In this document: one piece after another, positions 1 through 22,320 of the stretch
Numbering within the stretch: the stretch's first letter is position 1
How the letters are laid out: the number at the start of each line of letters is the position of its first letter
Virus record (IMG/VR): IMGVR_UViG_3300000477_000015
Coordinates: 1,092-23,645 of that record
Length of the DNA stretch: 22,554 bases
Direction: 5' to 3' (one strand)
Source of the DNA: a virus
Translations under genes and position numbers: made by a program
The notes under the pieces: model-generated
Database searches by the model: none
What the model was told of the DNA's origin: nothing
What the model saw: only the letters and a program-made list of their open reading frames with translations

Positions 1-54
1 TTGTATGCACCCCTCAAATCCTGTAAAAAATATTAAATCACTATCATTACTCAT
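1..54 (-). CDS. Start of a downstream tail-fibre-like gene (partial, runs off the window)
   Basis: The 18 visible codons begin MSNDSDLIFFTGFEGCIQ. The ATG lies inside the last codons of the preceding gene (ATGAGTAA overlap), the same stop/start coupling seen at 20299-20306. A start such as 'LIFFTGFE' is reminiscent of phage tail-associated proteins with a LamG-like jelly-roll fold, but 18 residues are far too few to assign a family. By position it would be a distal tail or receptor-binding component translated together with the tail-tip gene before it. Confidence 0.5.
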   Translation of the reverse strand, partial: MSNDSDLIFFTGFEGCIQ

Positions 55-2236
55 ATCTTGCCCCAAAATGAGTGTATGTTGTTTCACCAATATAATATCC
101 AATAACCACTAACTCTGAATCTTCTTCTTCCATTTCTCTTGTATATTCAAAACTCGTATCAGTTAATCCCGTTTCTTCTCTGATTAAATTTCCATTCTCA
201 TCATATATACGCACAGTGTAGGTTGTTCCCTCTTCAGGGTCAATACCTTCTTCTAACTGATCAACGATGTTTGTTCCTTGTTCTATTCTATTTCTATGTT
301 CCCATGAAATCACTCCTAAATCTTCTGTAAAATTTAATGGTCTATATTCACCATTTATACGAAATTTACCTGGAGGATATGGTCTAATAAATCTATTATT
401 CATTACAATCATATCATATGCACCTAAAGGTTGTGCTAAAACAGAATCCTTTAATTGTGTACAAGCCAAAGCATGTACAGTTTCTCCAGATAAATATTCA
501 CGATAATCTGTATTAATTACACTTCCAAAAAACCAAATACGTGAACCACTATTATGATATTGTGGAATTGTATCTAAAACTCCTCTCTTTATTTTGAAAG
601 TCTGATCTGAATTAATCTGTTCAATAAAAACAGCTTCATCATTAATCATAGCATAAGTTCCACCCTGAATCTTATATCTACTTACTAAATGACTAATTTT
701 AATTATAGTTTCTTCTTCAGAAGCAGGAAGAAAATCTTCAATTAAACCAATAGGAGTAAAATCACGAAGTCCATTAGCTCTCATATCATGAAATTGTTCA
801 GCAGCAGTAAAAAATTGAAAACCAATTGCTTCTGCTTGCGGACGAACAACTCCGTAATTAATGAAACCACTCATCTCATCAATTTCATCCCAAGCTATTT
901 GAGAATCTTGCAAATGTTTAGCTAGAACATAATATGGAAGTTCTTCTAATCTAGCGTAAGGAGGTCTTTTCGGAAAAGCTGAATACGGTTTTTGTGTGAT
1001 TTCTTTTGGAGGTCTTGTTCTATCTGAAACTATATAAACTGATTCATCTACACCTGAAATATCCTGAAAAAATTCAATCAGAACTTCGTTATTATTTAAA
1101 ACACCATAAGAAATATTCGATACTCTAACAACAACAGAATCAACTCCATAATCAGGCCATTGAATTTTAAACACATCACCAACAGTAAAATGAGAACATT
1201 CACGATTGCAAAGTATTTTTCCACCAATTAATTCTGTTCCTGCTTTTCTTAATTCCCGTGCTGCTACTCTATTAGCAAGAGCAGCATGTGAGATATATTT
1301 AAACTGTAAATCTTTTCCTATTTGTTGTCCTTGCGAACTAAGTAAAGAAATATCATGTAATGTAATACTTGCTTCTTCATCAATAACAGCACTATGATAA
1401 TTTAAAACAACTGTATTGATTAATTCATTTTTTGCCCGTCTAGTAAAATCAGTCATTTCCAATATACGATCAGGACCGACTACTTCAAGTGAATCAATAT
1501 CATAATCATTTCTGAGAAGTTTTAATTTAAATTTTCCTACACGAATATCAACATATAAAAAAGCATCTATATGCCGAACAACTTCATTGATAACACTTTG
1601 AATTTCATCTCCACGATCCCATATAAATGATAATCCAAACCCTTCATTAAATAAAATATCAGCAGCATATATAAATGATTCATTGTCTAAATCTTCAACA
1701 GGATAACCTAATCCCCATACAGTATTAGTTAAACATTCTCTGACTATATGGGCTGGATTCATATCAACAAATACTGGAAGTCTTACGATGGCAGTATAAA
1801 TATTACTGTGTTGTCGTTGGAAAAAAGTATCCCAAATAAGATGCATATATCCATTAACAACAGTAAAATCTATATTTGTTCTTCCAAATGGGCTTCCAAT
1901 ATTTTCAGCAAAACTATTTACATAAATTCCTGTTCCTTCAAGAGTCAGCATTGCATAATAGATTCTTCCGCCACTTTTCCAAGCAAGGTAAATCATTCCT
2001 CCAATGACTTTAATGCGAATCTTATTATTACCGCTTCCATTTTCAGAAACAAGAACCCAATTACTAGGTCTCCCTATTCCTACATATACTTTTCCATCAT
2101 TCTCAATCCAAGCATAATAAACAGTTGTTCCAGAAACAGGGTATCTGATAGTTGCTTCTGCTGGTTCTTCAGGCCAATCATGTTCTTCTTCAACTTCTTC
2201 ATCTTTTTCATAAACACCCACAGCACTAAATTCCAT
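47..2236 (-). CDS. B2: second copy of the central tail-tip protein, C-terminal half (Phage-tail_3-like)
   Basis: The protein has 729 residues. From about residue 159 (NPAHIVREC) to near the end it aligns almost gap-free with B1 (4811-6676): matching landmarks keep an offset of about 141 residues, including YPVEDLDNESF, EGFGLSFIWD, CNRECSHF (Cys343 in B2, Cys202 in B1) and RFIRPYPPG. This block resembles the putative phage tail protein family (Phage-tail_3) that builds the central tip/fibre of siphoviruses and gene transfer agents. Residues about 36-155 form an extra part with YYAW, IYLAW and HLIW strands that looks like three blades of a beta-propeller. The C-terminus (TYTVRIYDENGN) looks like a fibronectin-III-type strand set. 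ATG 2236 is the only ATG, GTG or TTG in this frame, but its ribosome binding site is poor and the frame is open and homologous to A1 up to about 2442, so the true N-terminus is probably longer. Confidence 0.85.
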   Translation of the reverse strand: MEFSAVGVYEKDEEVEEEHDWPEEPAEATIRYPVSGTTVYYAWIENDGKVYVGIGRPSNWVLVSENGSGNNKIRIKVIGGMIYLAWKSGGRIYYAMLTLEGTGIYVNSFAENIGSPFGRTNIDFTVVNGYMHLIWDTFFQRQHSNIYTAIVRLPVFVDMNPAHIVRECLTNTVWGLGYPVEDLDNESFIYAADILFNEGFGLSFIWDRGDEIQSVINEVVRHIDAFLYVDIRVGKFKLKLLRNDYDIDSLEVVGPDRILEMTDFTRRAKNELINTVVLNYHSAVIDEEASITLHDISLLSSQGQQIGKDLQFKYISHAALANRVAARELRKAGTELIGGKILCNRECSHFTVGDVFKIQWPDYGVDSVVVRVSNISYGVLNNNEVLIEFFQDISGVDESVYIVSDRTRPPKEITQKPYSAFPKRPPYARLEELPYYVLAKHLQDSQIAWDEIDEMSGFINYGVVRPQAEAIGFQFFTAAEQFHDMRANGLRDFTPIGLIEDFLPASEEETIIKISHLVSRYKIQGGTYAMINDEAVFIEQINSDQTFKIKRGVLDTIPQYHNSGSRIWFFGSVINTDYREYLSGETVHALACTQLKDSVLAQPLGAYDMIVMNNRFIRPYPPGKFRINGEYRPLNFTEDLGVISWEHRNRIEQGTNIVDQLEEGIDPEEGTTYTVRIYDENGNLIREETGLTDTSFEYTREMEEEDSELVVIGYYIGETTYTHFGARYE

Positions 2237-2442
2237 ATCTTCTTTTAAATCTGGATAAATCTGTGGGTCAGGTGTAATCCATCCATCTACATCACTAAAT
2301 TCAATCGTATATGTTTCTCCAATTTGTAATTCAACCCAATCATAATGATCTTCCCAACCAGTAAGACCTTGAATTTTCCATTTAGCTCCAGCATCACGTA
2401 CTGATTCTGGATGGATATATATTACTATTTTGGATTTGACAT
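2237..2442 (-). pseudogene. Orphan X module: coding frame upstream of B2 with no usable start
   Basis: The frame of B2 stays open from 2236 up to a stop at 2465-2467. The roughly 68 codons from 2442 encode a module (IHPESVRDAGAKW, then a WEDHYDWVEL stretch, then DVDGWITPDPQ) that matches the C-terminus of A1 (IEPEAVRDAGAQW, WMDHDEKVEL, DIEGWNKPDKQ). The conservation shows the frame is or recently was translated. It contains no ATG, GTG or TTG. An ATG at 2440-2442 lies in another frame and reads MSNPK, then TAG; a minus-1 shift on the AAAA run at 2428-2431 would join it to this module (MSNPK-IVIYIHPE). Possible readings are a frameshift mutation, an assembly error in the A run, ribosomal frameshifting, or a non-standard start. 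Confidence 0.6.
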
Positions 2443-2450
2443 TTATTTCT

Positions 2451-3041
2451 CTATAAATACATAATTAAAATCATATCATTAATATAATCACGTCCTGAAA
2501 CTATATTAATATATAACCAATCTCCAGCTTGTATTATACCAACATTTCCTTGAAAAGCACACATATGAAAAATATTAGTTCTGTTTATAGAAGGATTTCT
2601 GAGTTGGATTAAATGATCTTTTTCTCGTAAATAAGGAAGTTTACCGATATTTATAGGATTTGTTTCTCTTGTAACTGCTTCAGGGAAATAAATACCTTCA
2701 TAAGAATATGATATATTAGGCAACGGAGCATAGCTATATGAAGCACCATTTAAACTAACAGTACATAATCCTTCAATAAAATCAAAAGAATCATAGTTAT
2801 CTTTAGGTTCATTTGCATATCTCAAAACAAAATAAGCATTAAAAAAAGCATCAGGAGAATCAGCTAAAACAAGATCAAAAGAAACTGCTTTTGCATCTAC
2901 AGGTATAAAAACTTTATATTTATTACGCTCTTCATTACTTGGAGAAAAATTAGTAACTACTTGTTCAGCAGATTTTTCAATTCCAGAAAAAAATCTTTTC
3001 TTTGTAAATATGTGTGTATCACTTAAAGCTGTATAATACAT
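2451..3041 (-). CDS. Unrecognised tail-associated protein (196 aa)
   Basis: I do not recognise this 196-residue protein. It is rich in aromatic residues and beta-strand-like stretches (KVFIPVDAKAVSFDLVLA; NAYFVLRYA), with no signal peptide, membrane helix or clear coiled coil. It starts at an ATG with a weak AAAGAAA binding site, 9 bases after the 413-residue gene, and is presumably co-translated with it. Its stop is followed 8 bases later by the out-of-frame ATG in front of the orphan X module. Because it sits between the two halves of the second tail-tip copy, a role as a receptor-binding, decoration or fibre-attachment protein is likely, but this is inference from position only. Confidence 0.7.
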   Translation of the reverse strand: MYYTALSDTHIFTKKRFFSGIEKSAEQVVTNFSPSNEERNKYKVFIPVDAKAVSFDLVLADSPDAFFNAYFVLRYANEPKDNYDSFDFIEGLCTVSLNGASYSYAPLPNISYSYEGIYFPEAVTRETNPINIGKLPYLREKDHLIQLRNPSINRTNIFHMCAFQGNVGIIQAGDWLYINIVSGRDYINDMILIMYL

Positions 3042-3050
3042 AATTTTTCT

Positions 3051-4292
3051 TTATAAAATACTAGAACCATGTGTTACTTCATCAGAACTGTATTTATTGC
3101 ATTGAACAGGATTTTTTACTGGACAATGAATATCTTGATCCAAACATTTAACACCAACCATACCATGCCATGCATCTGGATTTCTTCCTACTCCATCAAA
3201 TACTTCCGTAATATTAAATTTTTCAAAATAATTACCAACACACATTCTTGCTGTAATAATTTTTCCAGGACCTATTCCTCTTCCTTCCATTGCTTCGCCT
3301 ACACCTCTAAATTCTCTAGCTCTCCACGAATAATAGGAATAATCAAGACAGATACTAAGACTTAAAAAATCCTTATAATCTAAATTAGTTGTCTTTACTG
3401 CATCAAAACAAAGATTGTTTCTCCAAAATACCATGTCCTTATATGCGAATAAGGGCTGTTCATATGGGGTATTGCAATGCCAAACTCCCCACCAAGGCCA
3501 TCTAGTTCTTCGCCATGCAAATCCTCTTGGCCCACCAAAAATATCACCACCAACATTATATCCAGTTCCTTCTAAGCACCAATTCTGTAATGCAGCACAT
3601 CCAACATGAAGTGCAACTACATTTCCTTGATGAATAAGACTACGTGCTTGACTTCCCATACCAATTCCAGCGTACATTGTAGCACCATAAAATTCATCCA
3701 TTTCAGAAAGTCCGTAAGTCCCATGAAAATTGAATCCCCCGCTTCTAATTCGTCTAGGATTAGGAAAATTTGTTCTTTGAGATGGTCTTATAGTATCAAT
3801 TCCTAAAATTCCTTCATTAGGATCAATGATATGCCATCCAGTATAACAAGCCCCTCCTCTTATATTATAACCATCATCACGCCTACTTTGTTTCCAGAAA
3901 AAATGCATTACACCAACTTCTTCACTTATTTTAAAACGAAGTCCCCTTTTAGCATGTCCTGTAGTTATTTGACGTGACTGCCAATTACTACCATCTTTAT
4001 CTACTTGAGCCATCCATATTTGAGGAGAACTTGTTCCTCTATGACAAGTACCAAGCCAAGCATAATAAACTCTATCATTAAATTTTTGTGCTTGAGGACC
4101 ACCATGACCAGTAGAAGTTATATCTGCTTTAGGATCTTTTTCTTCAAGTGTAGGTTCAGGAGGGAAATCAGTAGGATCACTTACTGGATGAACTCCTATA
4201 TCATCATAAATAGCATCTTCATCTTCAAACCATTCATCTGGATCAAAATAAAAATCTCCAGTTTCAGGTAAATAATTATCATAATCTGTCAT
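3051..4292 (-). CDS. Cysteine-rich propeller-like tail protein (413 aa), probable host-contact protein
   Basis: The family is not recognised. The first 60 or so residues are very acidic (DPDEWFEDEDAIYDD). Then come strands of the type DRVYYAWLG, QIWMAQVDKDG and GVMHFFWKQ, which resemble sialidase-type beta-propeller blades and the N-terminal extension of B2 (TTVYYAWIEN, MIYLAWKS). The middle is rich in glycine and tryptophan (RRTRWPWWGVWHC). There are 11 cysteines, three of them close together near the C-terminus (KCLDQDIHC then PVQC), which is unusual for a cytoplasmically assembled tail protein. It starts 2 bases after A2, with GGAG inside the last codons of A2 acting as binding site, so it is translationally coupled. 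A receptor-binding role is inferred from position and fold type. Confidence 0.75.
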   Translation of the reverse strand: MTDYDNYLPETGDFYFDPDEWFEDEDAIYDDIGVHPVSDPTDFPPEPTLEEKDPKADITSTGHGGPQAQKFNDRVYYAWLGTCHRGTSSPQIWMAQVDKDGSNWQSRQITTGHAKRGLRFKISEEVGVMHFFWKQSRRDDGYNIRGGACYTGWHIIDPNEGILGIDTIRPSQRTNFPNPRRIRSGGFNFHGTYGLSEMDEFYGATMYAGIGMGSQARSLIHQGNVVALHVGCAALQNWCLEGTGYNVGGDIFGGPRGFAWRRTRWPWWGVWHCNTPYEQPLFAYKDMVFWRNNLCFDAVKTTNLDYKDFLSLSICLDYSYYSWRAREFRGVGEAMEGRGIGPGKIITARMCVGNYFEKFNITEVFDGVGRNPDAWHGMVGVKCLDQDIHCPVKNPVQCNKYSSDEVTHGSSIL

Positions 4293-4294
4293 AA

Positions 4295-4801
4295 TTACTC
4301 CGATAATCCTGTTCTTCTAACTCCAGCTATAATAACATCATCAACTGGATCTTTTCCTACATAAGGAATAGATGCTTTTTCTGAGTACCATTTATCAAAG
4401 GTATTTACTCTTTCAACTGCAAATGACCAAGGATCAATATAAGGGCTATCTCCAACATATACTTGATTAAGAACAGCTCCTAAAACACCTCTATTAGCAG
4501 ATATATTATCAAATCCTAATATCCTTCCTAAATACTCATTTTGATCTTGATCTTCATCCCCAAACTCAATATCTACATAACAAGCAACACCACCATGATC
4601 TTCATATAATCCAGGTCTATTAACAAAAATAGTTCCTGTTTCTCGTATATTACCATGCCATACAGGTTCTTCTCCTACATTTATTTGTCGTACACCATCA
4701 GGAACAGCATGACAAAGAACCAAATGCATACCTACAAAATAACGATATCCTGTTATATCCTTTTGAATTGTACCTCCAGGACTACCTTTTTCCTTACCCA
4801 T
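4295..4801 (-). CDS. A2: second copy of the tail-tip N-terminal protein, lacking module X (168 aa)
   Basis: This protein is a shortened paralogue of A1 (6689-7633). Shared landmarks in order are MGK at the start, ITGYRYFVGMHLVLCH (A1: IIGYEYSVGMHLISCH), QINVGEEPVW (A1: QINIGDYTAW), YVDIEFG (A1: YVDVEWG), NRGVLG (A1: HRGVLG) and GDSPYIDPWSF (A1: GNSPYVKSWSF). It lacks the 35-45 residue insert that A1 carries near residue 72 and the whole C-terminal X module. In related phages this domain is the N-terminal part of the central tail-tip protein and is fused to the domain seen in B1 and B2. It has a good GGAG site before ATG 4801 and ends in LSE-TAA, with the same junction sequence found at the end of A1. 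Confidence 0.8.
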   Translation of the reverse strand: MGKEKGSPGGTIQKDITGYRYFVGMHLVLCHAVPDGVRQINVGEEPVWHGNIRETGTIFVNRPGLYEDHGGVACYVDIEFGDEDQDQNEYLGRILGFDNISANRGVLGAVLNQVYVGDSPYIDPWSFAVERVNTFDKWYSEKASIPYVGKDPVDDVIIAGVRRTGLSE

Positions 4802-4810
4802 AAAATCTCC

Positions 4811-6676
4811 TTATTCGACTTCAGCAACCCAACTAAGATTATTACCTTCTGATTGTGAAGAACTAGATTTAAGAATAAAAAGAGCATGACGATAAATAGT
4901 ATGTTCGTGTTTCTGCCATGATTCCCACTCATCACGCACACTAAATAATTGAATCGTTAATTTACTATTCAATCTATCAAGTCCTAAATCTTCTTTTTCT
5001 TGAGTATTAGTATATATATAACTTGTTCCTTCAATCTCAGTTTCTTCTCTCAAAAGTTCATCATTTTCATCATACATACGAATAGTATATGTCGTTCCTT
5101 CTTCAGGACCTATATTTCCTTCTTCTTGCTCAACTATGTATGCTGTTTGTTGTAATCTATCTCTGTGATTCCAAGTAACTTCTATATCTTCTCCTACTCG
5201 AATAAAAATAGGATATAATTTATCATTTAAACGAAAATTACCAGGAGGATAAGGACGAATAAATCTGTTATCAATAACAATAGAATCTTCTGGAGCTAAA
5301 CTAACAGGAAGAATTCCTTTAGCAGTAACAGACCTTGCTTTCATAAAAACTTCTTCACCAGTAACATATTCTATTCTATCAGTTCCATAAAATTGCTGAA
5401 TAAAAATAATTTTATCCCCTGCTGAATGTTCTTTTGGAGTAGTATCAAGAACTGCTCTATGTATATATAATTTAAAAGGAGGAACAGTTGTCATTCCGAT
5501 AATCTTAATTAATTCATCATTCAAAACAGCAAAAGTTCCCATGCGTACTTTATAAATATCAGAACTAAAAATACTAATTGAAAAAACTGTACTTAATTTT
5601 CCAATATCCTCATCTAAAATAGCATAAGGAGCAAATGGAAAATATTGTGCATGAGTTGAATAATTCTTTCCTTCTGTTTTACTGCTTAAAAAATAATGAT
5701 ATGAATCATTTGTTGGCTTATCAGCCCCATACATAACATAACTCATATTTTCATCAGGACCAATTTCATCCCATATAATCTCATGTTCTCCAAATATATG
5801 AACAAGAGAAAGATAAGGCATTTCTATAATAACTCTATGTTCAGAAGGTTCAGGATAATTTATAGGATCTTCCCATTTTGAAATAGGAGAATCAATATAA
5901 ACTGAATCCTGTAAACTATTAAAATCTTGTACTGCTTCAATAGCAATTTTATTATCTTCTAAAGAACCATATTGAATTGAAGAAATTCTCATTATTTCTG
6001 TTTCAATTCCATAATCTGGCCATTGTAATTTAAAAACATCACCAAGAGTAAAATGAGAACACTCTCGATTACAGATAATAGTAATTTTTGAAATTTCAGT
6101 AGAATATGTTTTAAGCTCTCTCATTGCTACAGCATTAGCAACATTAGAATTAGAAATACCATGTAATGTAACATCTTTTGGTATAATCTGTCCTTGAGCT
6201 TGTATAAGTGCTAAATCATGTATTGTAATACTTACATCTTGATGAGTATGTCCATCTGTATATGTTAATGTAAGAGTATTAATTAATTCAGTCTGAGTAC
6301 GCCTATAATAATCAGTTATTTCTATAATTTGTTCTGGACCAATTATAGGAAGTTCATCAACATCATAATCTACTCTTATTAACTTAATGACAAATTGTCC
6401 TGTCTTTTGATCTAAAAATAAAACAGCATCAATATGCCTTAAAATCTCAGTAATAAATTCCTCAATTTCTCCACATTGATCCCAAATAAAAGATAAACCA
6501 AATCCTTCATCATATAATGTCTGTGCTGCATTAATAAAAGATTCATTATTCAAATCTTCAACAGGATATCCCATTCCCCACTTCACATTAATTAGACATT
6601 CTCTAATTAAATGAATAGGATTTATATCATATAAATCAATTTCAGTTTCATGAAATTGGGATTGTGGTTCACTCAT
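4811..6676 (-). CDS. B1: central tail-tip protein, C-terminal half (Phage-tail_3-like)
   Basis: The 621-residue protein starts, after a short leader, with INPIHLIREC at residues 18-26, the sequence that in D3112/DMS3-like and GTA-like tail-tip proteins follows directly on the A domain in the same chain. Further landmarks are YPVEDLNNESF, EGFGLSFIWD, a DYDVDEL segment, CNRECSHF (Cys202 and Cys206) and RPYPPGNFR near residue 470. The C-terminal 100 residues (TYTIRMYDENDE) look like a fibronectin-III-type domain. It most likely forms the central tip or fibre below the hub and contacts the host. ATG 6676 is preceded by GGAG in a duplicated decamer. It shares roughly half its residues with B2 and is longer than B2 at the C-terminus. 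Confidence 0.85.
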   Translation of the reverse strand: MSEPQSQFHETEIDLYDINPIHLIRECLINVKWGMGYPVEDLNNESFINAAQTLYDEGFGLSFIWDQCGEIEEFITEILRHIDAVLFLDQKTGQFVIKLIRVDYDVDELPIIGPEQIIEITDYYRRTQTELINTLTLTYTDGHTHQDVSITIHDLALIQAQGQIIPKDVTLHGISNSNVANAVAMRELKTYSTEISKITIICNRECSHFTLGDVFKLQWPDYGIETEIMRISSIQYGSLEDNKIAIEAVQDFNSLQDSVYIDSPISKWEDPINYPEPSEHRVIIEMPYLSLVHIFGEHEIIWDEIGPDENMSYVMYGADKPTNDSYHYFLSSKTEGKNYSTHAQYFPFAPYAILDEDIGKLSTVFSISIFSSDIYKVRMGTFAVLNDELIKIIGMTTVPPFKLYIHRAVLDTTPKEHSAGDKIIFIQQFYGTDRIEYVTGEEVFMKARSVTAKGILPVSLAPEDSIVIDNRFIRPYPPGNFRLNDKLYPIFIRVGEDIEVTWNHRDRLQQTAYIVEQEEGNIGPEEGTTYTIRMYDENDELLREETEIEGTSYIYTNTQEKEDLGLDRLNSKLTIQLFSVRDEWESWQKHEHTIYRHALFILKSSSSQSEGNNLSWVAEVE

Positions 6677-6677
6677 T

Positions 6678-6697
6678 ATTACTCCGAATTACTCCGA
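6678..6697 (-). repeat. Tandem decamer ATTACTCCGA (two copies) at the A1/B1 junction
   Basis: On the plus strand ATTACTCCGA occurs at 6678-6687 and again immediately at 6688-6697. Read on the coding strand it supplies the last codons and stop of A1 (TCG GAG TAA) and then a second GGAG used as the binding site of B1. A single copy lies at 4294-4303, at the end of A2, where it plays the same double role. The shared junction indicates that the gene boundary existed before the cassette was duplicated. Confidence 0.7.
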
Positions 6698-7633
6698 AAT
6701 AGGTGTATATGTACCTTCAACACTATAACGTCCTCTTTTTAAAACAAAATCTTGCTTATCAGGCTTATTCCAACCTTCAATATCTTTAAAAACCAAAATA
6801 ACTTGTGTATTTTCTTCTAACTCAACTTTTTCATCATGATCCATCCAATCAGATAAAGGATCTTGTGGATCCAACACCCACTTTCTAGTTGCATTATAAG
6901 TCCCTGTATTAGGATCATAAGAATAATCTACTAAAACAGATTTCATATTATACTTATAAACTCTCCATTGTGCTCCAGCATCTCTAACTGCTTCTGGTTC
7001 TATTAAAACTTTAAATATAGCAGGATATTCACCAAAAGAAATAATAGGTTCTTTAACTGTACGTGTTACTGCATGTATTTCTTTAATATTTTCTTGCCAA
7101 TCATCAGTTAATTCAAAATTACTTACTAAAAAACTCCAAGACTTAACATATGGACTATTTCCTATATAAGGACGTCTTAAAACAAATCCAAGAACGCCTC
7201 TATGTGCTGAAGTATTTTCTGCTCCTAATTGCTCAACAAGATAATCATTCTGTCCTTGACTTTGAGAACCCCATTCAACATCAACATAACCTTCAACTCC
7301 ACCTTCCGATTGTGCCCAATTAGTAGGTTCTGCTCTATTTGCAGGCCTACGCCATGGATTTTCTATTGGATCAGGAGATTCCCATTCATCTCCTAAATCA
7401 AAACCTTCAATATCAGCGGGTCCAGCAAATAAATTGGGTTTGTCTATTTTAATTTGTTTTCCTTGTTCATTTTCTGAAAATAAAATAGTACCAACCCAAG
7501 CAGTATAATCTCCTATATTAATCTGTAAAAGAGAACTAACTGGACCATGACAACTGATTAAATGCATTCCAACAGAATATTCATAGCCAATAATCTGCTT
7601 CTGTTTACTGCCGCTTTCTCTATCTTTGCCCAT
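6689..7633 (-). CDS. A1: tail-tip N-terminal protein with C-terminal X module (314 aa)
   Basis: Residues about 14-190 correspond to the N-terminal domain of central tail-tip proteins of lambda-like, D3112-like and GTA-like phages (GYEYSVGMHLISCH, INIGDYTAW, HRGVLGFVLRRPYIGNSPY, WSFLV). Residues about 72-115 form an acidic, Pro/Trp-rich insert absent from A2. Residues about 205-314 form module X (IEPEAVRDAGAQWRV, WMDHDEKVEL, DIEGWNKPD), a beta-sandwich-like unit of the 'GA-x-W ... GW-x-x-P' type found in bacterial surface proteins. The start has a weak AAAGAAAAA site. The gene abuts the 63-residue gene upstream and is 12 bases from B1. In most relatives A and B are one chain, so A1 and B1 probably assemble into one tip complex. 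Confidence 0.8.
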   Translation of the reverse strand: MGKDRESGSKQKQIIGYEYSVGMHLISCHGPVSSLLQINIGDYTAWVGTILFSENEQGKQIKIDKPNLFAGPADIEGFDLGDEWESPDPIENPWRRPANRAEPTNWAQSEGGVEGYVDVEWGSQSQGQNDYLVEQLGAENTSAHRGVLGFVLRRPYIGNSPYVKSWSFLVSNFELTDDWQENIKEIHAVTRTVKEPIISFGEYPAIFKVLIEPEAVRDAGAQWRVYKYNMKSVLVDYSYDPNTGTYNATRKWVLDPQDPLSDWMDHDEKVELEENTQVILVFKDIEGWNKPDKQDFVLKRGRYSVEGTYTPISE

Positions 7634-7824
7634 TATTTTTTCTTTTTAACATTTTCTATTACTTTATTAATCATGGCATTGTTATATTTTTCAGCTTCCT
7701 CAATAGGAAACCCGTTTTTCAAGAAGTCTGTCCATGATTGGCCGTGTCTTTCAAAAAGCTTTCTTACGCCTTTCATACAGTACTTAACATTTCTGATGTC
7801 CTGAATATAAATTCTATCAGCCAT
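7633..7824 (-). CDS. Small conserved tail-region protein (63 aa), function unknown
   Basis: This short protein has the pattern I-x-D-x-R, YC-x-x-G-x-R, F-x-x-HG-x-x-W-x-x-FL (here IQDIRNVKYCMKGVRKLF, then RHGQSWTDFLKNG) and a basic end (KKKK). Similar 60-75 residue proteins occur in D3112/DMS3-like phages between the hub gene and the tail-tip gene, in the same order as here. It overlaps the genes on both sides by one base, so translation is coupled. It has one cysteine, no membrane helix, and no assigned function. Its base composition is richer in G+C than the tip genes that follow. Confidence 0.75.
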   Translation of the reverse strand: MADRIYIQDIRNVKYCMKGVRKLFERHGQSWTDFLKNGFPIEEAEKYNNAMINKVIENVKKKK

Positions 7825-8099
7825 TATTTCTTCTTTTCATCCCCGGATTCAATCTTGGTAACTTCTTTGATAGGCTCAGTTTTAAGATCACCGTACCAGA
7901 CAACATTCGGTCCCTTTAACCACCTAGTACCGAAGACTACTGGAATTTCTCTGCCAGGGCTCACTGTAGGGAAATCGAAGTCACCTTTTCCTGCTGGTTT
8001 AGCATGTTCACGATCAGCTATTTGAGGAGCCTGAGAAGGAGGTCTAAGCATGTAGCTGATTACTAAACTAGCTACAAAAAATCCAATATTCCACCACAT
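7824..8099 (-). CDS. Small tail-tip protein with N-terminal hydrophobic helix (91 aa)
   Basis: Residues 3-17 (WNIGFFVASLVISYM) form a hydrophobic segment long enough for a membrane or buried helix. It is followed by a proline-rich linker and the motif SPGREIPVVFG ... GPNVVWYGDL, which is conserved in small phage proteins encoded between hub and tail-tip genes. The C-terminus is charged (ESGDEKKK). A GGAG site lies 7 bases before ATG 8099. A role in the tail tip or at the host membrane is possible, but this is inference. Its codons are more often G- or C-ending than those of the neighbouring tip genes. Confidence 0.75.
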   Translation of the reverse strand: MWWNIGFFVASLVISYMLRPPSQAPQIADREHAKPAGKGDFDFPTVSPGREIPVVFGTRWLKGPNVVWYGDLKTEPIKEVTKIESGDEKKK

Positions 8100-8109
8100 A
8101 CAAATTCTC

Positions 8110-9075
8110 CTATACTAAAGCATTTCCTAAATCAGAAAATGGATTAACTAATGGTATGTAAGGAAATCCTCCAAAATTTAGAAGATTATCAAATTTATCT
8201 CTACATGTTTCAAGAGAATGATTACATCCAGCATAAATATTAGTATCAGCACCAATTTCAATATCAGGAGATAATGGTTTATTTATTTTTAATAAATCTC
8301 CTTCATGTCCAATAATATGTCGATGTACAAATTGTCCAATCTGAATATAACCTCCTACATACCAACCATTGCTTTTATCTCCAGCTCCACTAACTGTAAC
8401 TAAAACACCATCAATATCTGTTATAGTTCCTGAATGTTTAAAATCTTCTTTGGATACATTACACCTTCCTGCTCCTTGACTATACAAAGAATGACGACAA
8501 ATATATTGAAATTTAGCTAATAATCCATATCGTTTTAAAGAAGTAAAAACTGATTCACAATTAAATTTAGCTTCATCACCAGTAAATGAAACAGTAACAA
8601 CTCTACCTTTCCATATGGCTATAAAATTACTGGACAAAAATTTAGCAGGAGTAAAATCATCAGCAGGAGAAGCTTCAGGTGAATAATCAGGGGAAAAATC
8701 AGGAGATAAATCAGCAGAACCAATTAATTTATGTCCTCGATAAACAGTTAAAGAAGTTACTGTTTCAGGAGTATTTAAAATAAATAAACTTGCTAAAGGA
8801 TTATTTCTAGCTACAGTTATTTCCAAATCTGATTTAGAAATATCATTTGTCTGATCAATATCATTTCTTGTTATAGGAATAGAAACATAAACATTCTCAT
8901 CAGCATAAAGATCATGATAACTATCAGTAACAGGAGAAGATTCTTCTCCATGTCCTGCCATATAAATATGTTTATCCGCAGAAGTAAATCTCCAACTAAA
9001 TCCTTGAGCTTGAAAATGATATAATTCAATAGGATTTCCTTGATTTACACTTTCTTCAATAGCCCAATAACTCAT
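8110..9075 (-). CDS. Tail hub protein, DUF2163/phage BR0599 family, probable Fe-S protein
   Basis: The C-terminal half carries the family signature CRHSLYSQGAGRC (Cys193, Cys205) and CNHSLETC followed by KFDNLLNFGGFPYIP and NPF (Cys284, Cys291). In lambda gpL and the GTA hub protein a comparable set of four cysteines binds an iron-sulfur cluster, so the same is expected here. The protein forms the hub below the distal tail ring and holds the tip protein. Residues about 122-139 are a low-complexity Ser-Pro-Asp stretch (SPDFSPDYSPEASP), probably an extension of a loop. The start codon overlaps the stop of the upstream gene (ATGA), with GGAGTAGAAG before it. The length of 321 residues is typical for the family. 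Confidence 0.88.
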   Translation of the reverse strand: MSYWAIEESVNQGNPIELYHFQAQGFSWRFTSADKHIYMAGHGEESSPVTDSYHDLYADENVYVSIPITRNDIDQTNDISKSDLEITVARNNPLASLFILNTPETVTSLTVYRGHKLIGSADLSPDFSPDYSPEASPADDFTPAKFLSSNFIAIWKGRVVTVSFTGDEAKFNCESVFTSLKRYGLLAKFQYICRHSLYSQGAGRCNVSKEDFKHSGTITDIDGVLVTVSGAGDKSNGWYVGGYIQIGQFVHRHIIGHEGDLLKINKPLSPDIEIGADTNIYAGCNHSLETCRDKFDNLLNFGGFPYIPLVNPFSDLGNALV

Positions 9076-10223
9076 TCTTCTACTCCAATAACAGGAAATG
9101 TTACACTTACTACATTTTCTTCTTCATGACTTAACTCAACTCTATCCGTATCTAAACGATACAAACCTAAAAAATAAATAGCTTTTATATCATCAGGATC
9201 ACCTAATCCACTATTTAATGTAATTGTTTCTTCACTATTACTAATTTCAGAACATCCAGTAATCTTTCTTATTTCAACAGAACCATCATATTTATAACAG
9301 ATAATATTCTGAAACATAGGATTATCTTGTAAATACCTATAATAAAAAATATTTTCAATAATTAAAGTTGTTCCGTATTCAATTACTTGAATATCATGTT
9401 CAAAATTTGGAATCCAAAATGAATTTAATCTCCCTGATATATTATGTAACCATCTTTTAAAATTCCATATTTTTTCTCTTCCGACTAAATCAAAATGAAC
9501 ATTCTGAATAGATTGACGATGCCAGTCCATTCTCGAAAACACTTCAATTGAACCTATTTGATAATCAATTTTATTTAAACTCTGTCTTATTTCTTTTGTT
9601 ATAGAATTTCCATCTATATCAAAAGGATCAGCAAGCACATCATAATCTTTATATTGAGTTTCTAATTCTAATGCTTCAATTCCTTTATTAAACTCAACTC
9701 TCCAAAATAAATTTATTTCTTTTACATGAGAATAAATATCAAAAGTATTTGTTTGTTCTAAATATGCTCTTTTGGCAGGCATGATAAAAGATAAAGAACT
9801 ATAAGAATATATTAATGGTGTTTTTAAAGTAATAGTATTATCACTCACATCTTGTATTTCAACGAATTCATTAAAAGTTTCATCTTCCCATAAAGATATA
9901 TATTGACTATTTTGAAAATCATAATGCTTGGTATCAACATTTAATGAAGTACTTCCAGAAATAAAACTAGAATCAATTCTTTGTGCTTCAGTCCATACTG
10001 GAATAATAAATCTATTTTCAAAATTACCAAAAAGCATAGATTTCAATTTTGCAAAATGAGAATTACTACTTACATGCACTACCCATTCAAACTTTTGTCT
10101 TGGAAACTTTCTGATTTTTAATCTTTGTTCATTACCAAGATGAGCTTCAAGAATATCAGTAACCCATTCATATGATTCTTCTGTAGGCATTGAAGGTCTA
10201 TATGGAAACAAATCATATTGCAT
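9072..10223 (-). CDS. Distal-tail-like minor tail protein (383 aa)
   Basis: The gene lies directly between the tape measure gene and the hub gene, the place of the distal tail protein (Dit / DUF2460-like) in GTA-like and D3112-like phages. The end (FLGLYRLDTDRVELSHEEE, then VSVTFPVIGVEE) resembles the C-terminus of minor tail proteins of that position. Residues about 85-150 (GSTSLNVDT, then EFVEIQDVSDNTITLKTPL) look like a small beta module of the kind also found inserted in the capsid protein. No signal peptide or membrane helix is seen. The gene overlaps both neighbours (1 base with the tape measure, 4 bases with the hub). The identity is inferred from order and partial similarity, not from a diagnostic motif. 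Confidence 0.7.
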   Translation of the reverse strand: MQYDLFPYRPSMPTEESYEWVTDILEAHLGNEQRLKIRKFPRQKFEWVVHVSSNSHFAKLKSMLFGNFENRFIIPVWTEAQRIDSSFISGSTSLNVDTKHYDFQNSQYISLWEDETFNEFVEIQDVSDNTITLKTPLIYSYSSLSFIMPAKRAYLEQTNTFDIYSHVKEINLFWRVEFNKGIEALELETQYKDYDVLADPFDIDGNSITKEIRQSLNKIDYQIGSIEVFSRMDWHRQSIQNVHFDLVGREKIWNFKRWLHNISGRLNSFWIPNFEHDIQVIEYGTTLIIENIFYYRYLQDNPMFQNIICYKYDGSVEIRKITGCSEISNSEETITLNSGLGDPDDIKAIYFLGLYRLDTDRVELSHEEENVVSVTFPVIGVEE

Positions 10224-13200
10224 TATTTTATTACCTGTTTAATATATGAAGAATTCCTTTTAATAAAATTCTTTATTACTTTTTCACCAGAACTAGAAGT
10301 AGCCCAATCATTAAACAAAGATGGATCAAGCACATTCACAATTCTTGTTCCTTTTTCTTGTGATTGTTTTTGATATTCCATTTTATCTAATTTTCTATTT
10401 ATATCTTCCAGCATTCTTTTTTCTTGAACTACATCAGTTTTAGAAACAACTCGTTCTCCTTTTTCCAATATAGCTGGTATCTCATTAGAAGATAATCCTT
10501 TATGAAATCTAGGAGCATTTGCAAATATATTAGGATCAACTACTCTTGAAACTCCATCTTTTCCTACAATTCCTCCACTATGTAATGTAGCTGTAGTAAC
10601 TCCTCCTAATGTATTTGGTATTGAAGAAGTAGAGCTTCCAAATAACCCCATAGCTCCTTGCAAAGCATTAAACATTAATTGCTGTGCAATCATCTGAGAA
10701 ATATTTCTAAAGAAATCATACGCAAAACTTCTGAATGCTTCTTTTGCTGTCTCTGCACCTATAGCAAAATCAACAAAAGCATCAGCAAATCCACTCCCAA
10801 AATTAGTGTACATTTCTTCACCTAATCTAGCAGTGAATTCTCCCCATCCTTCAATATCTCTTTGTGCTCTCTCAGAGCCAAGCCTTAATCTTTCCCAAAA
10901 GTTTCCTTCAGCAATAATTTGTGCTTCTCGCTTTTCTTTTTCAAGATCCTCAATCCTATTTAAAAATCGTTGATGTGATAATTCCTTCTCAAGTAATAAC
11001 TGTTCATATTCATGATGATCTTTTCCATATACTTCTTTATATTCTCTTAAACGATCATCATAAAGTTCCATCAATCTAGAATTTAATTCTCTTTCAGCTT
11101 GTACTTTTATTTGTACTTGCTCATACGCAAGTTTTTCTTCATAACCAAAAGTACCAATAACTCCAGGACGTTGACTTTCCAATAAAGCTTCTGCCCCTCT
11201 ATCAATTCCAATTGTAGCAAGTTCTTTTCTTTGTTCAGCTATCGTTTTTTCTCTTTCAAAAAGCATGTCAGCTTTTTGAATTTCAGCATCCAAACGATCA
11301 AGACCTGACTCTTTTAAATCAAGATTTAATTCATTTAACTCTTCACGAAGTCGTTTAAGTTCTCCTTCATTTGCTTTTACATCATCAATTTTACTAATAG
11401 CTTTTTCTCTTTTTTCAATTTCTCTTTCAATGCGTTCAATAGCCAAATCAGCATTAGCAATAACAGAATCATATTCTTCCATTCTTCCACGAATAACATC
11501 CTCACGAAAAGCAAGTTCTCTTGCTCTCATTTCACGATCAAGAATCTGAATTCTTTTATCAGTTTCATTAACAATATCCTGAGTAATTCGTTCTTCAACT
11601 GCTTTTCTTCTATCTCTCATTTCCTGTTGATGATCTAAAACATTAATCCAATTCTCAATAGTTTCATCTTCCTCAAACATGGCTCTAGCTTCATCAAGAC
11701 GCATTTTTGCGTATTTCTTTTCAATTCTCAAAGCTTCCATAGAACCAGATTCAACCTGAAGCATTTCCTCTTTTTGTCTTGCTTCTAAAGCAGTTAATCT
11801 ATCATCCCAATGCTTCTCAAATATATCTAGTTCAAGATCAAACAAATTTCTTCGTGCTTGAAGATAAGCTATTTCCGCTTGTCTATCTTCTGGTCTCTGT
11901 TCATATACCATTCTTCTAGCATTGAGTATAGCTTGAGCGTATTCCTTACGAATCCTAAGCTCTTCCATTGAGTTATTACGAACATCAACTAATCTTTTCT
12001 GTTCAGCTAAATTGATTCGCTCAATCATTTCATCATAAACACCTACTTCATGTCTGCGACTTTCAAGCTGAACTTCTTGCCGTTCAATTCTGCGCTCTTC
12101 TAACTCATCCTGGAGTTCTTTTATTCTTTCCTGTTGATCACCTTGTTCTTTAAGTGTATTAATCAATTCTCTTCTTTCAGAAATTTCTTCATCAAGATTT
12201 CTCAAACGAGCTTGAATCTCCATTCCTTCTGCATCATAAACTGCTCTTTGACCCTCAATCACACTACGTTCAATATCAAGTAGTTCTCTTCTTAAAGCAC
12301 GCTCACGTCCATCAATCCTGCGTTCAAATTCATTAATAAGATCATCAGTTAATTTTTTCTCAACAGCAAGAACTCTATCAGCATGATTCTTTATAGCATT
12401 ATAAAGATTCATTAAATTTTCATGAGTAGAATCAGCCATATAACGATCTTCAGCTAAATCCAACAATCTTCTTGACTTTTCACGTTCAATTTCCAATTCT
12501 TTATTAGAACCTTCTTCCACAGCAAGGAGTTGTTCCATAGCTTCTCGTTCAATTAATTCACGACGGTCACTCCAATATTTTTCTTCAAGTGCATTTCTCT
12601 TTGCATTTAAATTTTCCTGAGCATCAAGAAATTGTTTATAATTTTCATCAGTACCATGTCTTCTGTACTCTTGTTCAGCTAAACGAAGTCTATCCTGAGC
12701 AAATTTAAGCTCAACCTGTAGTGCTTCTCTGGTATTATCACGAAGATGTAAAAGTTGCTCATCTCTTCTTAATTCCATTTTTGAAATATATTCATCATAA
12801 AGAGATGCTTCTTCCATTATTGTATTATATCTATCTTGTAACCATTCCTTTTCTTTTTCTCTTATTAACTTATTAACATCTTCAATTGTCTCAATATGAG
12901 GACCAAAAACTTCCTGTAATTTACGTTTTACTTCTTGAGGAGATTCTCCTTGCATAGTTTCAATATCAGCAAACTCAACTCCACCAAAAATACCTTCAAC
13001 AAACTCTCTCATGTCATTTCCAACTTCTCTAAGCTCATCTCTCTGAGCATACAGTTCGGCTCTTTGTCCTACTGTTAAGTCATTGAAAGATTCCAAAATT
13101 GAAGGACTTATATCTTTCAAAGTTCTTGCAAAAACTTCATAAGAACTGATAGTTTCATCAATAGCAGCTCCCATTCCTTTTATTCGTCTTGTAATTCTGT

Positions 13201-17830: not shown

Positions 17831-18040
17831 TTATGAAGGAAAAAAATTTATAATATTTTCATGACGACAATTTTGACGAAAGCACTTAATTTTTATTGAT
17901 CCAAAAACCTCAAGATCAACTACATTATCACCATCAGCACTTCTTCCAAATCTAAAAACAAAAGTACCGTTTGGTTTTCTTTTTAATAATTTTTTACCAC
18001 AACTTTGACAACTTATCCATGAATAATCTGTTACTACCAC
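17831..18040 (-). CDS. Small Com-like zinc-ribbon protein (about 69 aa)
   Basis: A CQSC knuckle near the N-terminus and KCFRQNC near the C-terminus (C-x2-C and C-x4-C) with the context IKIKC...CRHENIINF resemble the Com zinc-ribbon family of Mu-like phages, where Com activates translation of mom. Between the pairs lies a basic, beta-like stretch (KRKPNGTFVFRFGRS). The frame is open to a TTG at 18064. I prefer GTG 18040, which overlaps the stop of the tail terminator gene and has GGGG 6 bases upstream. The gene is placed between tail terminator and tube genes, where no such regulator is expected. A nucleic-acid-binding regulator or a structural zinc protein are both possible. Confidence 0.65.
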   Translation of the reverse strand: MVVTDYSWISCQSCGKKLLKRKPNGTFVFRFGRSADGDNVVDLEVFGSIKIKCFRQNCRHENIINFFPS

Positions 18041-18480
18041 ACTGTACCCCACTTTAAGAAACAAGTAACAGCAGACATTCTTGATTGATCCCTAGCAAAA
18101 GAAGTATCCTCTTGTGGAAGAAACTGAATTTTCATTGCTCCTATCTTCTTCCAAGGATGACTGTCAGTATCATATAAATCAATAAATCCAGGAAACATAA
18201 CTTCAATTATTTTGTCTCTCACTTGAGCATTTTTTATTCCTTCTGGATCTTTAATCGTAAATGTATAAAGACTTAAAGTACATTGGCTTACATGACGATT
18301 ATTAATTCCTCCTAAAGCAATAGAAATCCAAGCTCCATCAGAATCTTTAACTCCAGGATCACTTGTAATTATCCTATCAAAATACAGAGGATATTCTGTT
18401 ATATTATCAACAAAAAATTTCTTTACTGATCGTCTTATATTTAATTCTTTTACAGTAGGATCAAGCATAGTGGAACTCAC
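18034..18480 (-). CDS. Probable tail terminator protein (148 aa)
   Basis: The size and place (after the gp10-like gene, before the tube gene) fit the tail terminator that caps the tube and joins it to the head. The N-terminal helix (TVKELNIRRSVKKFFVDNI) is followed by strands (WISIALGGI, QCTLSLYTFTI) and a second helix (KNAQVRDKIIEVMF), an order typical of the gpU/gp17-type fold, and it ends in a strand (MSAVTCFLKWGTVW). The start GTG 18480 overlaps the previous stop (GTGA), indicating coupling; ATG 18468 is an alternative start. The family call is inference from order and predicted strand pattern. Confidence 0.65.
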   Translation of the reverse strand: MSSTMLDPTVKELNIRRSVKKFFVDNITEYPLYFDRIITSDPGVKDSDGAWISIALGGINNRHVSQCTLSLYTFTIKDPEGIKNAQVRDKIIEVMFPGFIDLYDTDSHPWKKIGAMKIQFLPQEDTSFARDQSRMSAVTCFLKWGTVW

Positions 18481-21072: not shown

Positions 21073-22320
21073 TTACGATCCACTATCTTCCTCAAACACC
21101 TTGAAGGTCATAATAGCATTAGGCCAGTACATAACAGGCAGACCCTTATTCTGAATTCTCATCCAGAGACCATCAGGATCCCATTCATCCTTGGTATCGC
21201 CGTACATACCCCAATTACGATTAAGACCAAAAGGAGCTTCCATAAACTCAGCAATAGTTTCTCCTTCAACAGAACTGGAGAAAAACATCAGCTTATCGTC
21301 ACAAGCAAACTTCTTTCTGAGAGAAATACGACCCTTTCCTTTGCCAATAGAAGTATTAACTTCATCAGCAAAATTCAGAGTATTATTTGCATAGTTGACG
21401 CTGGTTATTTCAGCTTCCTCATATTCAAACATAGTACCCATGTTATAAATACGGCAAGGACCAGGGCAGAAATCAGTAGCATCTTCAACTGTAACAGATG
21501 TGCTCGATCCACCGGTAATATCACCGGTTGTCCAAGATGAAATATCAAAAAATTCATCATAAACAATCAGGTTACCGAGACCCATCAAGTTCGCAAAAAC
21601 ACGCTGAGGATCACGATACAGGTCACCTTCACCAAAATGGGACTTCTTCAACAGATCCTGAAGATGCTCATCAAACATCCACCAAGAAAGCATATCACTG
21701 GTAATGACAGCGTACTCAGGTTCACGTCCAAGTTCATCCACATACTCCTTACGAAAATCAAATACGTCTTTCAAAGGAGTAGCAGAGCTTCCCTTACTTC
21801 CATCAGCCTTCTTCCAATAATCATCTCCAGATAAAGACTGAATGTTCTGAGAAGGAACATTGTAATTCACAGTGAACTTACTCCCACCCTTAATCTGATA
21901 AGAGAACTTATGATTAAAGAGCATTTGAGAAATCATCCACTCTTTCCTGCGATCACAACGAGCACGAAGCCGCTGAATCCTGCGAGCAGTTTGCTTCTCA
22001 GCAGTATAATAAGTCTGTTCAGTTAGAGGTTCACGCAGATTGTTCAGAATTACTTCATCCAGGAAAGTTTTTTCTTTCCAGTATGCAGCAACCGCAGAAC
22101 CTTCACTATAAAACTGATCATCTCCGACATTGGGAGCAGGAGAGCCAGGAGCAACAAAAGGAGTCATTCCTACGCTTCCATACTCAACCATCCATCGAAT
22201 TGTATCAGAATCAGCCCTATCTGTAGGAAACAAATTCACAAAAAGCAGATTCTCTTGACGAGGGAGCTTTTGTATGAATTTATTCAGAGTTTCCAATCTA
22301 AGAATTCCAGCACCTTTCAT
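21073..22320 (-). CDS. Major capsid protein, gpE family (415 aa)
   Basis: The N-terminal half has the features of the lambda gpE-type capsid family: PFVAPGSPAP near residue 55, LREPLTEQ, and a long basic helix (RRIQRLRARCDRRKEWMISQM) leading to a strand region (NHKFSYQIKGGSKFTVNYN). The end (EAPFGLNRNWGMYGDTKDEWDPDGLWMRIQNKGLPVMYWPNAIM, in part) also fits. The protein is longer than usual: residues about 258-326 (SVTVEDATDF, EYEEAEITSVN, NTLNFADE) form an apparent beta domain inserted before LRKKFACDDKLMFFSSS. It has a strong AGGGGGTG binding site, and C-ending codons are frequent, in line with very high expression. It builds the icosahedral shell. Confidence 0.9.
   Translation of the reverse strand: MKGAGILRLETLNKFIQKLPRQENLLFVNLFPTDRADSDTIRWMVEYGSVGMTPFVAPGSPAPNVGDDQFYSEGSAVAAYWKEKTFLDEVILNNLREPLTEQTYYTAEKQTARRIQRLRARCDRRKEWMISQMLFNHKFSYQIKGGSKFTVNYNVPSQNIQSLSGDDYWKKADGSKGSSATPLKDVFDFRKEYVDELGREPEYAVITSDMLSWWMFDEHLQDLLKKSHFGEGDLYRDPQRVFANLMGLGNLIVYDEFFDISSWTTGDITGGSSTSVTVEDATDFCPGPCRIYNMGTMFEYEEAEITSVNYANNTLNFADEVNTSIGKGKGRISLRKKFACDDKLMFFSSSVEGETIAEFMEAPFGLNRNWGMYGDTKDEWDPDGLWMRIQNKGLPVMYWPNAIMTFKVFEEDSGS

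What the first reader, a model, noticed from the sequence alone, without database searches (positions are those of the whole stretch)
47..7633. Duplicated and diverged central tail-tip cassette (A1-B1 and A2-B2)
A1 (6689-7633) and A2 (4295-4801) share landmark motifs in the same order, and B1 (4811-6676) and B2 (47-2236) align almost without gaps over about 590 residues. Related phages usually have one central tip protein, with A and B in a single chain. Two complete but diverged sets suggest either two alternative or mixed tail tips (hetero-oligomers), or one host-contact and one structural copy, which could widen host range.
Basis: partly seen in the sequence, partly recalled or inferred. 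Interest (0 to 1): 0.8.

Follow-up and report, generated by a model that had tools for sequence, protein, structure and literature searches.

The report
Phage with two diverged tail-tip hubs
This virus of bacteria carries two complete, strongly diverged sets of the protein that closes and steers the tip of its tail, where nearly all isolated relatives carry one; two other uncultured phages turn out to do the same, which suggests that some phages may build alternative tail tips.

Summary
B1 and B2 are 44% identical over 556 residues (E 9e-159). A1 and A2 are 33% identical (E 1e-32). A followed by B is the baseplate hub protein solved in phages JBD30 (8rk3) and Chi (8vjh), normally one chain and one trimer per tail. 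Here each hub is cut at the same A/B boundary and the set is present twice, while the neighbouring distal-tail, upper-baseplate and small chaperone-like genes are single. Set 2 is interrupted: two orphan genes lie between A2 and B2, and B2 has an extra N-terminal domain homologous to the tail of A1. B2 is not decaying: it is open over about 800 codons, keeps 75 of 90 conserved hub columns, and its hub part is modelled with high confidence as a JBD30-type hub. The tree places B2 beside B1 plus the nearest relative (support 100/100). Tandem or dispersed double hubs also occur in two other IMG/VR contigs (L171, L126), each pairing a compact hub with one carrying a ~390-residue insert at that boundary; 749 GenBank phages show at most two. 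Best reading: alternative hubs competing for one tail-end socket, set 2 carrying extra, probably host-contact, modules. The duplication is shown; the mechanism is inferred.

The parts
6689..7633 (-). A1, 314 aa: hub N-terminal part (residues ~7-197, corresponding to about the first 150 residues of JBD30 gp53, with an A1-specific insert) plus C-terminal 'GAQWRV' repeat-type domain
   Evidence: phrog_1101 3.8e-36; A HMM hit 7043-7615; Chi hub 8vjh_A 3.6e-8
6692..7021 (-). C-terminal domain of A1, homologous to the N-terminal domain of extended B2; sits at the A/B boundary
   Evidence: BLASTP 2.4e-10 without composition correction; phmmer 1.4e-7 in the other direction
6674..6687 (-). A1 stop codon / ribosome-binding site / B1 start (TCGGAGTAATAATG), the same motif as at the A2 end
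   Evidence: the DNA search: 3 hits (2 exact) against 0.36 expected with up to 2 mismatches
4811..6676 (-). B1, 621 aa: hub core, linker and two FNIII-type domains, with a C-terminal tail beyond the last domain
   Evidence: PF13550 6.2e-13; phrog_1101 3e-195; 8vjh_A 1.7e-81 and 8rk3_o 5.4e-64
4295..4801 (-). A2, 168 aa: second hub N-terminal part, without the A1 insert or extra domain
   Evidence: phrog_1101 2.2e-37; 8vjh_A 3.9e-9 and 8rk3_o 3.2e-8
4290..4303 (-). A2 stop codon / ribosome-binding site / start of the next gene (TCGGAGTAATTATG)
3051..4292 (-). 413-aa orphan ORF between A2 and B2; its N-terminal part has a weak YYAW-type repeat shared with the B2 N-terminus
   Evidence: no hit in Pfam, PHROGs, GenBank phages or IMG/VR; weak BLASTP 1.7e-4 to B2 N-terminus; AF2 model unusable, pLDDT 31
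2451..3041 (-). 196-aa orphan ORF between A2 and B2
   Evidence: no family hit; no IMG/VR relative; only chance-level phage hits
2234..2443 (-). domain in the B2 frame upstream of the annotated ATG, homologous to the A1 C-terminal domain; the nearest upstream ATG is in another frame
47..2236 (-). B2, 729 aa from the ATG (frame open to 2464): N-terminal repeat region (~1829-2143) then second hub core, linker and FNIII domains (~50-1768), ending without the C-terminal tail of B1
   Evidence: PF13550 3.6e-8; 8vjh_A 1.3e-80 and 8rk3_o 8e-61; AF2 residues ~236-800 mostly at pLDDT 80-97; Z 35.3 to 8rk3_b
7633..7824 (-). 63-aa single-copy gene annotated as tail assembly chaperone in PHROGs
   Evidence: phrog_1196 1e-20
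7824..8099 (-). 91-aa single-copy gene, homologous to the very N-terminus of phrog_1101, which is fused to the hub in both L126 copies
   Evidence: phrog_1180 1.5e-25, phrog_1101 4.3e-11
8110..9075 (-). single-copy upper baseplate protein (JBD30 gp50 / Chi gp27 / GTA hub type)
   Evidence: PF09356 2.2e-16; 8vjh_D 1.4e-22, 8rk3_g 1.1e-14
9072..10223 (-). single-copy distal tail protein (JBD30 gp49 type)
   Evidence: 8rk3_U 1.6e-19; phrog_1082 1.2e-93
10223..16159 (-). tape measure protein, single copy
   Evidence: PF10145 1.5e-33

Best explanation
A1+B1 and A2+B2 are two complete, anciently diverged copies of the siphophage baseplate hub (JBD30 gp53 / Chi minor-tail-protein type), each made as two polypeptides cut at a boundary where relatives often carry inserted domains. 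Shown: the homology, the double set, single-copy neighbours, integrity of both copies, and double hubs in two other phages. Inferred: the tail has one three-fold socket, formed by the distal tail and upper baseplate proteins, that takes one hub trimer, so hub 1 (compact, with a C-terminal tail of the kind that docks the receptor-binding protein in JBD30) and hub 2 (with extra modules at the A/B boundary: 413-aa ORF, 196-aa ORF and the B2 N-terminal domains) compete for it. A burst would then hold virions with one tip or the other, which differ in what they touch on the host surface.
For: Homology and solved structures. Partners single copy: distal tail, upper baseplate, tape measure. [quoted passage not shown] B2 keeps 75/90 and B1 80/90 conserved hub columns (others mean 90%, minimum 77%), and B2's hub part models as a JBD30 hub. 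Tree: B2 is sister to B1+L022, 100/100. B1-B2 identity is 54% in the core and 28% in linker+FNIII-1; the core/C-half ratio is 1.59 against a median of 1.30 for 1,019 relative pairs (5-95%: 1.04-1.67). Recurrence: L171 has a compact hub directly followed by a hub with a 391-aa insert; L126 has one of each. In these, the hub N-terminal parts resemble each other by genome (13 sites against 1) while the insert is shared by copy type, E 2e-12, as expected if both copies must fit the same tail. A/B boundary inserts in other phages include VWA and LamG-type domains.
Against: No virion data; nothing shows that both hubs are made or assembled. The core/C-half ratio lies inside the 5-95% range of ordinary pairs. 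The by-genome signal rests on two contigs and few sites and could also mean independent duplications. No regulatory switch was seen: one 17-nt imperfect inverted repeat pair only. A one-socket tail is taken from JBD30, not shown here. The C-terminal difference of B2 could instead mean that it binds something other than a receptor-binding protein.
Confidence: 0.45

Rival explanations
1. Division of labour in one tip: hub 1 closes the tube, and the second set sits elsewhere in the tip (stacked below hub 1 or around it) as a carrier of the orphan proteins and the B2 N-terminal domains.
For: Set 2 holds two extra genes and an extra N-terminal region exactly at the A/B boundary, and B2 lacks the C-terminal tail that B1 has. 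Chi-like phages carry a partial second copy of B's distal half inside one chain, so a repeated distal module in one tip is possible.
Against: B2 keeps the whole conserved hub core, including its N-terminal half with 54% identity to B1, more than a peripheral carrier would need. The Chi-type repeat lacks that core.
Confidence: 0.22
2. Mixed hubs: A1/A2 and B1/B2 assemble into hetero-trimers or crossed A-B pairs in the same virion.
For: Both hubs are cut into separate A and B polypeptides, which allows crossed pairing. The stop/start signal is the same at both A ends.
Against: Linker and FNIII regions, which pack between neighbouring subunits in JBD30 and T5 (PMC11445458, PMC10038345), are only 28% identical between B1 and B2 (linker plus FNIII-1). 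In L171 and L126 each hub is one chain.
Confidence: 0.13
3. The second set is a spare: a duplicate or acquired copy in slow decline or kept as a recombination reservoir, not assembled into virions.
For: B2 has the longer branch (0.98 against 0.68 for B1 from their fork) and slightly lower retention of conserved columns. Its start region is unclear.
Against: No stop in the ~800-codon frame, codon usage like the rest of the phage (r 0.94), confident hub fold, and a double-hub state present in both L126 and L171 although the hubs of the two phages are now only ~55-57% identical.
Confidence: 0.12
4. Assembly artefact: the contig joins tail modules of two related phages from one metagenome.
For: Metagenomic contig; reads are not available for coverage checks.
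Against: B1 stop and A2 start are 9 bases apart with a good ribosome-binding site. Composition and codon usage are even over the two sets. The same tandem layout occurs in the unrelated sample of L171.
Confidence: 0.05

Closest known systems
Baseplate hub gp53 of Casadabanvirus JBD30 (PDB 8rk3, 8rk6, 8rk7; PMC11445458)
   Same: Both A and B regions are homologous along their length (8e-61 for B2 and 5e-64 for B1). Same neighbours in the same order: distal tail, upper baseplate, two small genes, hub.
   Different: JBD30 has one gene, one chain of 735 aa and one trimer. Here the hub is cut into two genes, present twice, with orphan genes inside set 2.
Minor tail protein / hub of phage Chi and other Casjensviridae (PDB 8vjh; e.g. 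FSL SP-030, DoubleBarrel, Enc34)
   Same: Homologous hub (E 1.7e-81) that also carries repeated B material.
   Different: There the second copy covers only B's distal half, in the same chain (in Enc34, in a second ORF), about 23-30% identical to B1/B2. Here the complete A+B hub is repeated.
IMG/VR contigs 3300045952_000240 (L171) and 3300005294_000064 (L126)
   Same: Two complete hubs in one phage; one compact, one with a ~390-residue insert at the A/B boundary.
   Different: Each hub is a single chain with the small N-terminal domain fused on. They form a separate clade, so the duplication is independent of the window's.
Phage lambda gpL/gpI/gpJ and RcGTA gp13/gp15 (PMC10721106)
   Same: Precedent for spreading one hub over several polypeptides; the B2 model aligns with lambda gpJ (Z 20.0).
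   Different: Their cut lies between hub domain I and the rest, not at the A/B boundary, and there is one set.

Membership tests
Siphophage baseplate hub (JBD30 gp53 / phrog_1101 type) | Sequence homology along the hub N-terminal part and the core-linker-FNIII part | tested here: met
   phrog_1101 matches for A1, A2, B1, B2; 8rk3_o and 8vjh_A matches
Siphophage baseplate hub (JBD30 gp53 / phrog_1101 type) | Predicted hub fold | tested here: met
   B2 model: Z 35.3 to 8rk3_b over 559 residues, 32.7 to 8vjh_A, 20.0 to lambda tip 8iyk. rmsd over the whole chain is large (20 A), probably because domains are placed differently relative to each other. Only B2 was modelled
Siphophage baseplate hub (JBD30 gp53 / phrog_1101 type) | Gene order distal tail - upper baseplate - small genes - hub | tested here: met
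   compare
Siphophage baseplate hub (JBD30 gp53 / phrog_1101 type) | A and B in a single chain | tested here: not met
   A1|B1 and A2|..|B2 are separate ORFs; one search found only three other split A-B pairs (L012, L049, L117) against 155 single-chain pairs. The B proteins are filed as hub homologues, the split set as a variant
Siphophage baseplate hub (JBD30 gp53 / phrog_1101 type) | Trimer closing the tail tube in the virion | not testable with these tools
   needs virion structure or proteomics
Chi-type internally repeated tip protein | Second copy limited to the distal half of B, within one chain or one adjoining ORF | tested here: not met
   second set holds A, hub core and distal part in separate ORFs
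Double-hub arrangement (compact plus insert-bearing hub) as in L171 and L126 | Two complete A-B sets in one phage, one with a large insert at the A/B boundary | tested here: met
   here the material at the boundary is spread over separate ORFs and has no detectable similarity to the L171/L126 insert

The most novel reading that the evidence does not exclude
Some uncultured siphophages keep two hub genes for the single tail-end socket, one compact and one loaded with contact domains at the A/B boundary, so that one burst yields virions with two kinds of tail tip: host-contact diversity made by the tip scaffold itself, without DNA inversion or retro-mutagenesis, a state that arose at least twice and was retained.
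Probability: 0.35. Interest if true: 0.8.

Novelty: new variant of a known kind. Interest (0 to 1): 0.55.

Why it matters
The hub is among the most constrained parts of a siphophage tail tip: it closes the tube, holds the tape measure and carries the receptor-binding parts, and every solved siphophage tip consulted here has one. A phage with two full hubs raises a direct question about tail assembly (which hub starts the tail?) and about how host contact can vary within one clone. The A/B boundary, where relatives insert VWA, LamG and other domains, also appears as a natural mounting point for contact modules in this hub family.

Tried and rejected
(1) Similarity limited to motifs: rejected. 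(2) The Chi-type partial repeat as the same thing: rejected, it lacks A and the hub core. (3) Many GenBank phages with two hubs: the 838 places in 757 records looked like it, but with B's N-terminal half as query it is 751 places in 749 records, so the surplus comes largely from Chi-type repeats; the two surplus places were not traced. (4) Apparent second hits in G038, G069, G074, G094 and others: wrap-around of a record or fragments, not second complete hubs. (5) Identity of the 413-aa and 196-aa ORFs: no homologue found in Pfam, PHROGs, GenBank phages or IMG/VR; AF2 of the 413-aa ORF without relatives gave pLDDT 31 and was not searched. (6) Relationship of set-2 boundary material to the L171/L126 insert: none detectable. 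(7) A-domain tree: too short; A2 joins A1+L022 only with support 81. (8) DNA inversion or repeat-based switch: no suitable repeats. (9) Single-protein IMG/VR scans with B1, B2 and the upper baseplate protein found no relatives; alignment-based scans were needed. (10) Literature searches for duplicated hubs or tips found no clear precedent in the open-access library.
Full report
WHAT IS THERE. The window is the minus-strand structural module of a siphophage: major capsid protein (21073-22320), tape measure (10223-16159), distal tail protein (9072-10223), upper baseplate protein (8110-9075), two small genes, then A1, B1, A2, a 413-aa ORF, a 196-aa ORF and B2. The record is a 23,645-bp viral contig; the window is bases 1092-23645. 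Downstream of B2 lies one further ORF of at least about 326 aa without an assigned function.

THE DUPLICATION IS REAL. B1 and B2 share 44% identity over 556 residues (E 9e-159); A1 and A2 share 33% with an A1-specific insert (E 1e-32). A and B match consecutive stretches (78-220 and 220-800) of one family, phrog_1101. The same family occurs as one chain in the solved hubs of JBD30 (8rk3_o, 735 aa) and Chi (8vjh_A, 1296 aa), with E-values of 5e-64 and 1.7e-81 for B1 and 8e-61 and 1.3e-80 for B2. In JBD30 this protein, gp53, is the baseplate hub: a trimer at the tail end, held by distal tail and upper baseplate proteins, gated at its tip by three helices, with its C-terminus docked into the receptor-binding protein (PMC11445458). 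The partners of the hub are present once in the window.

First, set 2 is opened up at the A/B boundary: 413-aa and 196-aa ORFs lie between A2 and B2. Second, B2's frame is open upstream of its ATG (2236) as far as 2464 and encodes there a domain (IHPESVRDAGAKWKI...DVDGWITPD) homologous to the C-terminal domain of A1 (IEPEAVRDAGAQWRV...DIEGWNKPD), E 2e-10. The nearest upstream ATG is in another frame, so the true start is unsettled (an unusual start, slippage, or a sequence error). Both A genes end in the same stop/ribosome-site/start signal, TCGGAGTAATWATG, found exactly only at these two places in the window. The boundary thus looks homologous in both sets.

THE A/B BOUNDARY IS AN INSERTION SITE IN THE WHOLE FAMILY. 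In 58 of 155 single-chain A-B pairs the boundary holds more than 200 extra bases, and in the second IMG/VR scan 69 of 72 do; both samples are chosen by similarity and are not an unbiased rate. Pfam names von Willebrand A domains in KY006853 (Erythrobacter phage R6L), L129 and L150, a LamG-type lectin fold in L085, and weak sugar-binding-domain matches in L072 and L124. Binding to host surfaces is a plausible role for such domains but is inferred.

IS THE SECOND SET ALIVE? The B2 frame has no stop; it keeps 75 of 90 columns that are at least 80% conserved among 59 other hubs (B1 80; the others average 90%, minimum 77%); its codon usage matches the rest of the phage (r 0.94); and its hub part (about residues 236-800 of the extended frame) is modelled mostly at pLDDT 80-97 with Z 35.3 to the JBD30 hub. 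Its branch is longer than that of B1 (0.98 against 0.68 from their fork). The C-terminus differs: B1 ends with a tail of about 30 residues like other hubs, B2 stops near the last strand.

WHERE IT CAME FROM. L022, a short IMG/VR contig with A and B in one unsplit chain, is 56% identical to B1 and 41% to B2. The tree puts B2 beside B1+L022 with 100/100 support. So the two copies separated before L022 and B1 did, by duplication or by acquisition from a close relative; the tree cannot tell these apart. Because L022 is unsplit, the split is either parallel in both copies, reversed in L022, or was copied from one set to the other.

HOW RARE IS IT? With the N-terminal half of B as query, GenBank phages give 751 places in 749 records; the two surplus places were not traced and could be records cut at their origin. 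Chi-like phages have a partial second B (distal half only) in one chain. Among roughly 210 other IMG/VR loci scanned, many of them fragments, two contigs hold two complete hubs: L171 (compact hub 4550-7051, then insert-bearing hub 7055-10753) and L126 (insert-bearing hub L169:12503-16123, fibre genes, compact hub L169:2592-5969). They form a separate clade, so complete double hubs arose at least twice.

WHAT THE OTHER DOUBLE HUBS SUGGEST. In L171 and L126 the ~390-residue inserts are homologous to each other (25% identity, E 2e-12), which points to one ancestral compact/insert-bearing pair. Yet in the hub N-terminal part the copies resemble each other by genome (13 informative sites by genome, 1 by copy type, 5 crossed); the core gives 10, 8 and 2; the distal part gives 8, 8 and 9. 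This fits copies that must keep fitting the same tail while their tip sides drift apart, but the numbers are small and independent duplication with a transferred insert also fits. In the window, B1 and B2 are 54% identical in the core, 28% in linker plus FNIII-1 and 34% in the whole C-terminal half; the core/C-half ratio of 1.59 is high but inside the 5-95% range (1.04-1.67) of relative pairs.

MECHANISM. Most likely (0.45): two alternative hubs for one tail-end socket, hub 2 with extra contact modules. Alternatives: set 2 elsewhere in the same tip (0.22), mixed or crossed hubs (0.13), unused copy (0.12), chimeric contig (0.05). No step beyond homology, integrity and recurrence has been shown; none of it has been tested in a virion.

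VERDICT. The hub family is known and solved; complete duplication with both copies cut at the insertion-prone boundary is a new variant. I found no clear precedent in the open-access literature that could be searched, which does not exclude one elsewhere.

Noticed in passing
window 2234-2464: In-frame coding sequence upstream of the annotated B2 start, with the nearest ATG in another frame next to a short A-run: unusual start, slippage site or sequence error.
   Followed up: partly
L171:4550-10753 and L169:2592-16123: Two further phage contigs with two complete hub genes, one compact and one with a ~390-residue insert at the A/B boundary; the inserts are homologous to each other.
   Followed up: yes
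A/B boundary of hub genes in many loci, e.g. L005:9404-10003, L085:4010-4747, L129:4662-5285, L150:3114-3812: Insertion hot spot in the hub protein with VWA, LamG-type and unassigned domains.
   Followed up: partly
L007, L008, L009 (Casjensviridae): Partial second copy of the distal half of B inside the tip protein; in Enc34 the protein is annotated as two ORFs.
   Followed up: partly
window 21073-22320: Major capsid gene has clearly different codon usage (GC3 0.34 against about 0.06-0.16 in the other genes tested, RSCU r 0.59) and no tblastn match in 50,697 GenBank phage records.
   Followed up: no
window 9072-10223: The distal tail protein matches JBD30 gp49 only from residue 194 on; the N-terminal ~190 residues of the JBD30 protein have no counterpart here.
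   Followed up: no
window 17831-18064: 77-aa ORF with a CxxC...CxxxxC pattern, looks like a small zinc-ribbon protein.
   Followed up: no
window 3051-4292 and 1829-2143: A YYAW-type repeat is shared by the 413-aa orphan ORF and the B2 N-terminal region (19 nt at 95% identity, and weak protein similarity); possibly pieces of one repeat domain now in separate ORFs.
   Followed up: partly
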